From an uncultured Ruminococcus sp. (GTDB lineage: Bacteria; Bacillota; Clostridia; Oscillospirales; CAG-272), in contig CADBKZ010000001.1 in assembly GCA_902795355.1 (NCBI GenBank), positions 1-64,000 on the forward strand: DNA of 64,000 nt, given 5' to 3'. Position numbers and translations under genes: made by a program. How positions within the stretch are numbered: the stretch's first letter is position 1; every line of letters begins with the position of its first letter. A model generated the notes under the pieces. It saw nothing but the letters and a program-made list of their open reading frames with translations, searched no databases and was not told the DNA's origin. Positions 23,199-58,117 of this stretch are shown here, piece after piece.

Positions 23199-24056
23199 AT
23201 GAAAACTCTCGGGTATTATAACGGGGTTGCGGAAGAGGCCGAAAAGCTCCGCATTCCCGCGCTCGACCGCGCCTGCTATTTCGGCGACGGGGTCTATGAT
23301 GTTACATACAGCCGCAACTACCGCATTTTCGCCATGGAAGAACACATTGCCAACCTGTTCCGCAGTGCGGCCGCCGTGGAAATGGAACCGCGGATTACGC
23401 CGGACGAGGCAGCCGCACTGCTCCGCGATCTGGTTGCGCGCATGGATACGGGCGAAAACCGGATTTACATACAGTTTTCCCGCGGAACGGCCCCGCGGGC
23501 GCACGCGTTCCCGCATGGAGAATCGCGCCCCAACCTCTTGGTTCTGATCTTCCCCGCCGCCGTTCGCGATCCCTACCGCCCCATGCGCTGCATTACGCGC
23601 CCCGACACCCGCTTTTTCCATTGCAACGTCAAGTCTCTCAATCTCCTGCCGAACGTGCTGGCGAGCGAGGCCGCCGAACGCGCGGGAGCGGACGAATGCA
23701 TTCTGCACCGCAACGGCGTTGTTACCGAGTGCGCCCATTCCAACGTTTCCATTCTGCTGGGCGGAACGCTCCTGACCCACCCCGCCAACGAACGGATCTA
23801 CGCGGGCACGGGGCGGGCGCACCTGCTTTCGCTCTGCCGAGCGGTCGGCATTCCTGTGGAAGAAAAGACCTACACGCTGGAAGAGCTGAAAAAGGCCGAT
23901 GAAATTCTCGTAACGTCCGCTTCCGTTTTCTGCGCGCCGGTACTCGAATTGGACGGCGAGCCGGTGGGCGGCGGACGCCCCGAGCTTGTTCGCGCTTTGC
24001 AGGACGCCCTGACCGACCGCTATCTGAAAGAAACAAACGCTCCGTCTCCCGTATAA
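23199..24056 (+). CDS. Class IV PLP aminotransferase, D-amino acid transaminase-like
   Basis: A 285-residue fold-type IV enzyme. Visible marks are the FGDGVYDVTYS motif, the PLP-binding lysine in NVKSLNLLPN, the CILHRNGVVTECAHSN segment with its conserved Glu, and NERIYAGTGR. The pattern matches D-alanine/D-amino acid aminotransferase (Dat), which would supply D-Ala or D-Glu for peptidoglycan. Branched-chain aminotransferase and aminodeoxychorismate lyase are the alternatives. RBS GGAAAGGAAG. No convincing promoter was found upstream. Its stop codon lies inside the following terminator stem. Confidence 0.8.
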   Translation: MKTLGYYNGVAEEAEKLRIPALDRACYFGDGVYDVTYSRNYRIFAMEEHIANLFRSAAAVEMEPRITPDEAAALLRDLVARMDTGENRIYIQFSRGTAPRAHAFPHGESRPNLLVLIFPAAVRDPYRPMRCITRPDTRFFHCNVKSLNLLPNVLASEAAERAGADECILHRNGVVTECAHSNVSILLGGTLLTHPANERIYAGTGRAHLLSLCRAVGIPVEEKTYTLEELKKADEILVTSASVFCAPVLELDGEPVGGGRPELVRALQDALTDRYLKETNAPSPV

Positions 24057-24099
24057 AACAAAGCGGAGAGCTTCCAAAGAAAGCTCTCCGCTTTGTTTT
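24055..24099. terminator. Bidirectional terminator between the aminotransferase and ohrR
   Basis: A 19-bp perfect stem (24055-24073 / 24081-24099) with a 7-nt loop and A4/T4 ends. The left arm begins within the aminotransferase stop codon. Confidence 0.9.
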
Positions 24100-24107
24100 A
24101 TAACGCG

Positions 24108-24548
24108 TTATGATTGCTCCGCAAAATACCCGAGAAGCTTATGGAGCGTTTGGTAAAGGGTCAACGCCTCGTCCGCTTCCAGCCGGATGCACCCCGCAAC
24201 CTGCTCGGGAATCCGCACGGCCGCCTCGCGGAGCGACATTCCCGCCTCGGTAACTTCCGCAATCAGCAGGCGTTCGTCCTCTTTGCATCTCTCGCGCGTA
24301 ATGTACCCCTTGCTCTCCAACGCTTTGAGAACCGGCGTCAGCGTTCCGCTGTCGAGAAAGAGTTTCTTCCCGAGGTCGCGGACGCTGACCGACCGCTGTT
24401 CCCAGAACACCATCATGGCGATATACTGCGTGTAGGTCAGCCCCAATTCGGACAGATACGGATGGTACCGTTTTACCACTTCCCTTGCCGCCGCATAAAG
24501 CGGAAAGCAAAGTTGATTTTCCAATTTCAAAGCGTCGTATTTCGCCAT
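24108..24548 (-). CDS. OhrR-type MarR-family peroxide sensor/repressor
   Basis: A 146-residue winged-helix regulator. The N-terminal LENQLCFPLYAAAREV segment carries the single reactive cysteine in the same context as Bacillus OhrR, and LTYTQYIAMMVFWE, LFLDSGTLTPVLKALE and ERCKEDER match the OhrR wing and recognition helix. OhrR proteins lose DNA binding when this Cys is oxidised by organic hydroperoxides. It is the last gene of gpx-TSCPD-ohrR, and no ohr gene is in the window, so the peroxidase genes are the likely targets. The start at 24548 has AAGGAAG. Confidence 0.9.
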   Translation of the reverse strand: MAKYDALKLENQLCFPLYAAAREVVKRYHPYLSELGLTYTQYIAMMVFWEQRSVSVRDLGKKLFLDSGTLTPVLKALESKGYITRERCKEDERLLIAEVTEAGMSLREAAVRIPEQVAGCIRLEADEALTLYQTLHKLLGYFAEQS

Positions 24549-24573
24549 TGTGCGTTTCTTCCTTTCTTCGCGT

Positions 24574-24834
24574 TCAGGCCGCGTGCGTTTCGTTATACGC
24601 CGCGCGAACCGCCTTTGCAAGCTGATCGGCGCAAGAGGTGGGGCGGCGGCCGCAGGTGTTGCCGAGAAGATATTCTTCAATCTTCTCCACCGTCCATCCG
24701 TCCACCAGCTTGGCAATGGCTTTCAGGTTTCCGTTGCACCCGCCGTAAAACACGATGTTGGTGATGATATGATCATTGATGTCGAAGCTGATCACCTGCG
24801 AGCAGGTCATCTCGGTTTTGTATTCGTAGTGCAT
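24574..24834 (-). CDS. TSCPD-domain protein
   Basis: An 86-residue protein of the small TSCPD family, with the conserved GGCNGNLKAI and TSCADQLA segments and three cysteines (CSQ, GGCNG, NTCG) besides the TSC one. The same domain occurs at the end of vitamin-B12-dependent ribonucleotide reductases, but the free-standing form has no established function. Its ATG overlaps the gpx stop (TGATG), and the RBS GGAGG lies in the last codons of gpx, so translation is coupled to a peroxidase and followed by ohrR. Confidence 0.8.
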   Translation of the reverse strand: MHYEYKTEMTCSQVISFDINDHIITNIVFYGGCNGNLKAIAKLVDGWTVEKIEEYLLGNTCGRRPTSCADQLAKAVRAAYNETHAA

Positions 24835-25376
24835 CAAAGCGCCTCCTCAACTTTTGCTTTCACTTTCTTCATATTCTCCGTAGGCTCAAACCGCGCAACG
24901 ATCTCGCCCTCGCGGTTGATCAGGAATTTGGTGAAATTCCATTTCACATTGCCGTTGTTTTTGTAGTCCTTATCCATTTTTTTCACTGCGGAACCGAGAA
25001 TCAGCCCCATGGGGCCTGCATGGAAGCCCTCGAACTTGGTGTTCTCGGAAAGATACCGGAAAAGCGGATCCGCGTTCTCTCCCAAAACGTCAATTTTGGA
25101 GAACTGCGGGAATGTGATGCCGAAGCGACCCGTGCAGAAAGAATGGATCTCCTCGTCGCTCCCCGGGGCCTGCTCGGCAAATTGGTTGCAGGGGAAATCG
25201 AGAATTTCCAACCCGTCCTTCTGATGTTCCTCGTAAAGATCCTGCAATTCATCATACTGCGGGGTAAAGCCGCAACCCGTTGCGGTGTTGACGATTAAAA
25301 GGACCTTTCCCCTGTAATCCGCGAGAGATACCTCGCTCCCATCCTGCGCTTTTACCTTGAAATCATAGACCGACAT
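24834..25376 (-). CDS. Glutathione peroxidase-family thiol peroxidase (copy 1)
   Basis: A 180-residue GPx-fold peroxidase using Cys instead of selenocysteine ([11 protein letters not shown]), with catalytic Gln in DFPCNQF and Trp in KWNFTKF. Bacterial Cys-GPx enzymes mostly use thioredoxin as reductant and reduce organic hydroperoxides. The start at 25376 has GGGAGGAAAC. It is the first gene of gpx-TSCPD-ohrR, driven by a full-consensus promoter with dyads just after the -10. Copy 2 is at 57597-58070 and has the same operator. Confidence 0.95.
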   Translation of the reverse strand: MSVYDFKVKAQDGSEVSLADYRGKVLLIVNTATGCGFTPQYDELQDLYEEHQKDGLEILDFPCNQFAEQAPGSDEEIHSFCTGRFGITFPQFSKIDVLGENADPLFRYLSENTKFEGFHAGPMGLILGSAVKKMDKDYKNNGNVKWNFTKFLINREGEIVARFEPTENMKKVKAKVEEAL

Positions 25377-25403: not shown

Positions 25404-25432
25404 AAATTCAATTGAGTTCAATTGATTTCAAT
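25404..25432 (-). promoter_or_regulatory. Candidate OhrR operator of gpx copy 1
   Basis: Two overlapping dyads: attga-tt-tcaat (25421-25432) and caattga-gt-tcaattg (25409-25424). On the minus strand 25423-25404 reads AATTGAACTCAATTGAATTT, identical to the site at 57562-57581 before the other gpx. It starts 3 nt after the -10, covering the transcription start. Confidence 0.75.
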
Positions 25433-25435
25433 GTC

Positions 25436-25464
25436 ATTATATCATACGGAACCGCGTTTGTCAA
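25436..25464 (-). promoter_or_regulatory. gpx copy 1 promoter
   Basis: Full consensus TTGACA (25459-25464), 17-nt spacer, TATAAT (25436-25441) with an extended TATGA. Confidence 0.9.
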
Positions 25465-57530: not shown

Positions 57531-57559
57531 TTGACAAACACCGCGCAAAACGGTATAAT
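57531..57559 (+). promoter_or_regulatory. gpx copy 2 promoter
   Basis: Full consensus TTGACA (57531-57536), 17-nt spacer, TATAAT (57554-57559). Confidence 0.92.
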
Positions 57560-57561
57560 TA

Positions 57562-57581
57562 AATTGAACTCAATTGAATTT
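57562..57581 (+). promoter_or_regulatory. Candidate OhrR operator of gpx copy 2
   Basis: AATTGAACTCAATTGAATTT, identical over 20 nt to the minus-strand sequence at 25423-25404 before gpx copy 1. It contains the perfect dyad AATTGA-AC-TCAATT and starts 2 nt after the -10. Confidence 0.75.
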
Positions 57582-57596
57582 GGAAAGGATACGAAC

Positions 57597-58070
57597 ATGA
57601 ATATTTACGATTTCACCGTGAAAAACATTGCGGGAGAGGACGTTTCGCTCTCCGAATACCGCGGGAAGGTTCTGCTGGTGGTCAACACGGCCACGGGGTG
57701 CGGCTTTACCCCGCAATACGAGGGGCTGGAAAACCTTTACCGGCAATATGCGGAACAGGGGCTTGTGATCCTCGATTTCCCCTGCAACCAATTTATGCAC
57801 CAAGCGCCCGGGAGCAACGGCGAAATTGTGGAGTTCTGCAAACTGCACTACGACGTCACCTTTCCGCAGTTCTCGAAAATCGACGTGAACGGCAAGAACG
57901 CCGACCCGCTTTATAATTGGCTCCGCGCGCAGAAAAAGGGCGTTTTCGGCGGCAACATCAAATGGAATTTCACAAAATTTCTGATTGACCGCGAGGGCAA
58001 CGTGGTTGGTCGCTTCTCCCCTGCCACCAAGCCCGAAAAGCTGGAAGAAAAAATCAAAGCGTTGCTCTGA
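57597..58070 (+). CDS. Glutathione peroxidase-family thiol peroxidase (copy 2)
   Basis: A 157-residue Cys-type GPx with [18 protein letters not shown] and KWNFTKF giving the Cys-Gln-Trp triad plus Asn. It is shorter than copy 1: the segment before KWNF is ~20 residues shorter (compare GPMGLILGSAVKKMD there with [10 protein letters not shown] here). RBS GGAAAGGAT. Single-gene unit divergent from the flavodiiron protein, so both O2/peroxide defences share one intergenic region. Likely regulated by the OhrR-type protein at 24108. Confidence 0.95.
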
Positions 58071-58074
58071 ACGC

Positions 58075-58117
58075 AAAAAAAGAGGGCGTTTCCCGCGGGA
58101 AACGCCCTCTTTTTTTC
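58075..58117. terminator. Bidirectional terminator between gpx copy 2 and the XRE gene
   Basis: A6, a 12-14-bp stem agagggcgtttcc... and its complement around cgcg, then T7. Strong in both directions. Confidence 0.92.

What the first reader, a model, noticed from the sequence alone, without database searches (positions are those of the whole stretch)
57562..57581. Identical 20-nt dyad operator in front of both gpx genes, implying an OhrR-controlled peroxide regulon
AATTGAACTCAATTGAATTT occurs at 57562-57581 (plus) and exactly at 25423-25404 (minus), each time 2-12 nt after the -10 of a full-consensus promoter for a Cys-type glutathione peroxidase. It contains the perfect dyad AATTGA-AC-TCAATT; gpx copy 1 has a second overlapping dyad. 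Copy 1 is co-transcribed with an OhrR-type MarR protein carrying the reactive-Cys context LENQLCF. OhrR usually controls ohr; none is in the window, so here it may control GPx enzymes and a TSCPD protein instead. The operator match is direct observation; the regulator assignment is inference.
Basis: partly seen in the sequence, partly recalled or inferred. Interest (0 to 1): 0.72.

Follow-up and report, generated by a model that had tools for sequence, protein, structure and literature searches.

The report
OhrR-type peroxide operator controlling gpx genes
In this gut or rumen clostridial genome, both peroxide-removing gpx genes carry the same 24-letter repressor-binding site, almost certainly for the peroxide-sensing OhrR protein encoded beside one of them; this is an OhrR circuit that runs gpx instead of the usual ohr gene, related to one known in Pseudomonas.

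Summary
The 20-mer occurs only at 57562-57581(+) and 25404-25423(-), each just after a perfect sigma-70 promoter. It is part of a 24-bp operator, AATTn-AATTG-N4-CAATT-nAATT. Its two best matches in the 2.16-Mb genome are the promoters of the genome's only two gpx genes. GPx1 and GPx2 are 52% identical and lie in separate clades, so the shared site is not a recent duplication.

Relatives support OhrR as the binder. Upstream of 73 dereplicated OhrR-homologue operons, usually carrying gpx and/or TSCPD, this palindrome is the top de novo motif: 53 have it with at most 1 mismatch, against 2.1 in shuffles. All nine operator-bearing genomes tested encode an OhrR homologue. Promoters of gpx without this OhrR lack the site. 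The genome has no Ohr/OsmC gene.

Corrections: the site is longer and overlaps the -10; a second OhrR paralogue has a different operator and operon.

OhrR-family control of gpx is known (P. aeruginosa OspR), so this is a new member of a known kind. Unusual: absent ohr, an unlinked second gpx, TSCPD and thioredoxin as recurrent targets. No binding has been measured.

The parts
57531..57559 (+). gpx2 promoter: TTGACA, 17 nt, TATAAT
   Evidence: 12 of 12 consensus match
57557..57580 (+). OhrR1 operator of gpx2: AATTAAATTGAACTCAATTGAATT, overlapping the 3' end of the -10 and the expected start of transcription
57597..58070 (+). gpx2, Cys-type glutathione peroxidase-like protein (157 aa), stand-alone gene
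   Evidence: PF00255 4e-42; translation
58075..58116 (+). intrinsic terminator after gpx2
   Evidence: 19-pair stem with T tail
25436..25464 (-). gpx1 operon promoter: TTGACA, 17 nt, TATAAT
   Evidence: 12 of 12 consensus match
25405..25428 (-). OhrR1 operator of the gpx1 operon: AAATCAATTGAACTCAATTGAATT
   Evidence: 1 mismatch of 18, second-best site in the genome
25420..25433 (-). additional overlapping dyad CATTGAAATCAATT, shifted by 10 bp, upstream half of the gpx1 operator array
   Evidence: 1 mismatch; function inferred
24834..25376 (-). gpx1, Cys-type glutathione peroxidase-like protein (180 aa)
   Evidence: PF00255 3e-39; translation
24574..24834 (-). TSCPD-domain protein (86 aa), start codon overlaps the gpx1 stop
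   Evidence: TIGR03905 above cut-off
24108..24548 (-). ohrR1, OhrR-type MarR repressor with C14 and C120
   Evidence: best PDB match 1z91, B. subtilis OhrR, 1e-37; cysteine conservation
24055..24099 (-). likely terminator hairpin after ohrR1 (19-bp stem ending in TTTT)
   Evidence: read directly from the sequence

Best explanation
The two sites are operators for the OhrR-type repressor encoded at 24108-24548 (OhrR1). Reduced OhrR1 dimers sit on the 24-bp AATT array that overlaps the start of transcription and block RNA polymerase at the gpx1-TSCPD-ohrR1 operon (autoregulation) and at the unlinked gpx2. A hydroperoxide, probably organic, oxidises Cys14. This is probably followed by a disulfide to the conserved Cys120 of the partner subunit. 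OhrR1 then leaves the DNA, both gpx genes and the TSCPD protein are made, and the Cys-GPx enzymes, probably reduced by thioredoxin, remove the peroxide. Shown here: the sites, their uniqueness, their conservation and their association with OhrR1. Inferred: binding, the ligand, the disulfide, derepression and the electron donor.
For: Only two gpx genes in the genome and they own the two best operator sites. De novo palindrome search upstream of 73 dereplicated OhrR-homologue operons returns AATTG-N4-CAATT as top motif (16 exact, shuffle mean 0.13; 53 with at most 1 mismatch against 2.1), at about -30 to -90 from the start codon. Class-wide scan of 391 genomes: 43 sites against 8 for the reversed control; of 29 foreign loci read, 19 have a gpx and/or OhrR homologue within the roughly 3-kb locus and 3 more have thioredoxin. 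All 9 operator-bearing genomes tested have an OhrR homologue, unlinked or 8.6 kb away in four. OhrR and gpx co-occur: 13 of 13 OhrR genomes have gpx against 3 of 47 others. Promoters of gpx without OhrR1 lack the site. Operators precede TSCPD-OhrR operons that have no gpx, as in R. flavefaciens. Recognition helix LDSGTLTP matches B. subtilis OhrR. Published OhrR sites have an AATT-N-AATT core (PMC4999210).
Against: No binding or expression data. The second OhrR paralogue in the genome could cross-bind. About a quarter of the OhrR-homologue operons (20 of 73) lack a core site within 1 mismatch. In G042 an OhrR homologue and a gpx coexist on different contigs, with only a weak site upstream of the gpx -35. 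The ungapped alignment puts Cys120 one residue after X. campestris Cys127. The genomes compared are related, so the p-values overstate independence.
Confidence: 0.87

Rival explanations
1. The sites are bound by the second OhrR paralogue (OhrR2, contig C6:175809-176219) or by both paralogues.
For: OhrR2 is also an OhrR-type protein with LENQLCF, and in relatives G022 and G055 an OhrR2-type gene is adjacent to gpx.
Against: OhrR2 and its relatives have another palindrome in their own promoters, TTATRTCG-N4-CGATATAA, perfect only once in the genome; the two gpx promoters do not resemble it (5-6 mismatches). Its recognition helix differs (LKANTLAP against LDSGTLTP). Genomes with only OhrR2 lack the AATT operator at gpx.
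Confidence: 0.06
2. The shared sequence is only the residue of a recent gpx duplication, with no regulatory meaning.
For: Both genes are gpx and the 20-mer is identical.
Against: GPx1 and GPx2 are 52% identical and fall in different, well-supported tree regions, each nearer to foreign genes. The rest of the two promoters has diverged. The nearest GPx2 relative (G035, 70%), in a genome without a detected OhrR, has no such site. The palindrome is conserved across the class.
Confidence: 0.02
3. Another MarR or redox regulator, such as a PerR/Fur-type protein, binds the sites.
For: The genome has seven MarR-domain hits in all; palindromes at promoters are common.
Against: The operator tracks OhrR1 homologues across genomes, including operons without gpx, and its AATT core is what is published for OhrR proteins (PMC4999210, PMC3389018). 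No analysis of PerR/Fur was run here.
Confidence: 0.05

Closest known systems
Pseudomonas aeruginosa OspR-gpx (PMC4999210)
   Same: OhrR-family repressor controlling gpx; AT-rich operator with AATT blocks and TCAA/TTGA half-sites; [quoted passage not shown]
   Different: P. aeruginosa also has ohr/OhrR; here there is no ohr in the genome, a second unlinked gpx shares the operator, TSCPD is in the operon, and the AATT spacing (5/10/5) differs from the OspR boxes (N15, N11).
Bacillus subtilis OhrR-ohrA
   Same: Closest solved structure (1z91), same LENQLCF site and LDSGTLTP helix; published site is the inverted repeat TACAATT-AATTGTA (quoted in PMC3389018). From memory, not tested: its full ohrA operator also has AATT blocks at 5/10/5.
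   Different: Controls ohrA, and is a one-Cys regulator (family knowledge); here the targets are gpx genes and a second Cys is conserved.
2-Cys OhrR of Xanthomonas campestris and Chromobacterium violaceum (PMC3469484)
   Same: Sensing Cys near the N-terminus and a second Cys about 105 residues later (C21/C126 in C. violaceum; C14/C120 here), which form an intersubunit disulfide there.
   Different: Those control ohr; the second Cys here aligns one residue off without gaps.

Membership tests
OhrR subfamily of MarR repressors | Overall similarity to OhrR structures | tested here: met
   Best PDB hits 1z91 (1e-37) and 2pfb/2pex OhrR; NCBIfam OhrR model best but at 169.8 bits, below its 200 cut-off
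OhrR subfamily of MarR repressors | Reactive Cys in LENQLCF and the tyrosines near it (B. subtilis Y29, Y40) | tested here: met
   C14 in 107 of 108, Y28 and Y39 in 108 of 108 homologues
OhrR subfamily of MarR repressors | Operator with AATT-N-AATT inverted repeats over the promoter | tested here: met
   24-bp AATT array at both gpx promoters and across homologous operons
OhrR subfamily of MarR repressors | Controls ohr (OsmC family) | tested here: not met
   No PF02566 hit in the genome; 1 of 60 relatives has one and it lacks this OhrR. OspR shows that this feature is not obligatory for the family
OhrR subfamily of MarR repressors | Released from DNA by organic hydroperoxide | not testable with these tools
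   needs gel shift or reporter
2-Cys OhrR class | Second conserved Cys forming an intersubunit disulfide | tested here: inconclusive
   C120 conserved in 101 of 108, but one residue off X. campestris C127 in the ungapped alignment
OspR-like OhrR/gpx systems | OhrR-type gene linked to gpx and gpx promoter with its operator | tested here: met
   Same operon in the window; gpx within 2.5 kb upstream of OhrR in 46 of 80 fetched homologue loci
OspR-like OhrR/gpx systems | Regulator controls gpx in the cell | not testable with these tools
   needs a mutant and transcript measurement

The most novel reading that the evidence does not exclude
Across ohr-less Clostridia, OhrR1 runs a compact peroxide regulon of gpx, TSCPD and thioredoxin, where the TSCPD protein is a dedicated, so far uncharacterised partner of peroxide defence, and gpx genes of different lineages have been captured repeatedly by two OhrR subfamilies that read different operators.
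Probability: 0.45. Interest if true: 0.55.

Novelty: new member of a known kind. Interest (0 to 1): 0.42.

Why it matters
It gives a concrete, testable peroxide-sensing circuit for a large group of gut and rumen anaerobes, shows OhrR working in a genome without ohr, and ties an uncharacterised TSCPD family and thioredoxin genes to peroxide defence. The two-paralogue, two-operator set-up is a ready system for studying how MarR proteins change DNA specificity.

Tried and rejected
The one-mismatch sites on C2 and C23 were rejected: the C2 site overlaps the first codons of an HNH-type gene and the C23 site lies in GC-rich sequence without a recognisable promoter. Two weak 3-mismatch sites on C5 were not pursued; the one read lies 60 nt from an AraC-family gene. 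In the 60 relatives most perfect AATTGANNTCAATT hits outside gpx promoters looked like chance hits, many in coding sequence, so the longer 24-bp pattern was used. Papers on OhrR with Clostridium gpx, or TSCPD with MarR, gave nothing relevant in the open-access library; subscription papers were not covered. The original B. subtilis operator paper was not held. A recent-duplication origin was rejected by the GPx tree.

Full report
Observation. The 20-mer AATTGAACTCAATTGAATTT is present exactly at 57562-57581(+) and 25404-25423(-), and nowhere else in the window with up to 3 mismatches (0.01 expected). In the whole genome (2.16 Mb, 97% complete) the perfect core AATTGANNTCAATT occurs only at these two places. 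Each lies just after a 12-of-12 sigma-70 promoter with a 17-nt spacer.

Genes. The window holds gpx1-TSCPD-ohrR1 on the minus strand (24108-25376) and a stand-alone gpx2 on the plus strand (57597-58070). Pfam and NCBIfam give GSHPx for both peroxidases, TIGR03905 for the TSCPD protein, and MarR with OhrR as best model for the regulator. A genome search finds exactly these two gpx genes and no OsmC/Ohr gene.

The real operator. Upstream regions of the first gene of OhrR-homologue operons (from 80 loci; 73 after removing near-copies) were searched for any 5-bp-arm palindrome. AATTG-N4-CAATT came out on top: 16 exact cases against a shuffle mean of 0.13, with no palindrome exceeding 6 in any shuffle. 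53 of 73 have it with at most 1 mismatch against 2.1 expected. The aligned columns show further AATT blocks 5 bp outside each arm, giving AATTn-AATTG-N4-CAATT-nAATT. In the window this is 57557-57580 (no mismatch) and 25405-25428 (one mismatch). At gpx2 it overlaps the last 3 nt of the -10, and the expected transcription start falls inside it. With up to 3 mismatches the only other places in the genome are shifted registers at gpx1 and two weak sites on contig C5; the reversed control gives none.

Which protein. (a) OhrR1 is in the gpx1 operon; its closest solved relative is B. subtilis OhrR, with LENQLCF, the flanking tyrosines and the recognition helix LDSGTLTP. (b) In 60 relatives, all 13 genomes with an OhrR homologue have gpx, against 3 of 47 without (Fisher p about 1e-10, genomes not independent). 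(c) Promoters of gpx in genomes without OhrR1 have no such site (3-4 mismatches in 10), while those in genomes with it have 0-2. In one of these, G042, the site is misplaced upstream of the -35. (d) TSCPD-OhrR operons without gpx, for instance in Ruminococcus flavefaciens (L065, L082) and relatives (L072, L076), still carry the operator, so it follows the regulator rather than gpx. (e) A scan of 391 genomes of the class for the 24-bp pattern gave 43 sites against 8 for the reversed control. Of 29 foreign loci read, 19 have a gpx and/or OhrR homologue within the roughly 3-kb locus and three more precede a thioredoxin-sized gene (L164, L166 and L167; the first and third were identified as thioredoxin with Pfam, L166 by its matching layout). 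All nine operator-bearing genomes tested encode an OhrR homologue, in four of them on another contig or 8.6 kb away.

The paralogue. The genome encodes a second OhrR-type protein (C6:175809-176219, 45% identical) that heads an operon with a metallo-beta-lactamase-rubredoxin fusion and a ferritin-like protein. Its promoter has a different palindrome, TTATGTCGTATGCGATATAA, conserved in front of related genes in G014, G022, G033 and G055 and perfect only once in the genome. Its helix is LKANTLAP and it lacks the second cysteine. It is the only serious rival, and the sequence evidence points away from it.

Not a duplication relic. GPx1 and GPx2 are 52% identical. In the tree GPx2 sits with a gene from G035 and other lineages, GPx1 with the operon genes. 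The closest GPx2 relative, in a genome without a detected OhrR, lacks the operator. So gpx2 has probably been brought under OhrR1 control separately.

Mechanism. By analogy with characterised OhrR proteins, reduced OhrR1 represses and oxidised OhrR1 releases. A second cysteine (C120) is conserved in 101 of 108 homologues, which suggests the 2-Cys disulfide mode seen in C. violaceum (PMC3469484) and in OspR at the gpx promoter (PMC4999210); the register is one residue off X. campestris C127, so this is inference. Both GPx proteins have the cysteines expected of thioredoxin-dependent Cys-GPx (family knowledge). Thioredoxin genes under the same operator in relatives and next to OhrR in L054 fit that.

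Known or new. OhrR-family control of gpx is established for P. aeruginosa OspR (PMC4999210), so the finding is a new member of a known kind. Its less expected points are the lack of ohr in the genome and in nearly all 60 relatives (1 of 60 has OsmC), the second unlinked gpx, and the recurrence of TSCPD (56 of 80 loci) and thioredoxin as partners. Binding, the inducing peroxide and the role of TSCPD are untested.

Noticed in passing
L123 1400-3357 (genome contig C6, around 175700-177600): A second OhrR-type gene heads an operon with a metallo-beta-lactamase-rubredoxin fusion and a ferritin-like protein, under a different conserved palindrome (TTATGTCGTATGCGATATAA) lying between -35 and -10.
   Followed up: partly
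L118 1501-2490 and L119 938-1914 (G055, G022): In relatives the second OhrR type is adjacent to gpx under the ATCG palindrome, so gpx is tied to two OhrR subfamilies with different operators.
   Followed up: partly
L164, L166, L167 (motif at 1501), L161, L054: Thioredoxin genes lie directly behind the AATT operator or next to the OhrR gene in several Clostridia.
   Followed up: partly
L065, L072, L076, L082 (Ruminococcus flavefaciens and relatives): TSCPD-OhrR operons without gpx keep the operator, which suggests that the uncharacterised TSCPD protein is a core part of the response.
   Followed up: partly
L036 5303-5725, L042 5521-5973, L070 5580-5993: A short flavodoxin-like gene lies between gpx/TSCPD and OhrR in some relatives.
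   Followed up: no
L046, L074, L089: The gpx-TSCPD-OhrR operon also occurs in Spirochaetota genomes (with an operator-like dyad in L089), suggesting transfer between phyla.
   Followed up: no
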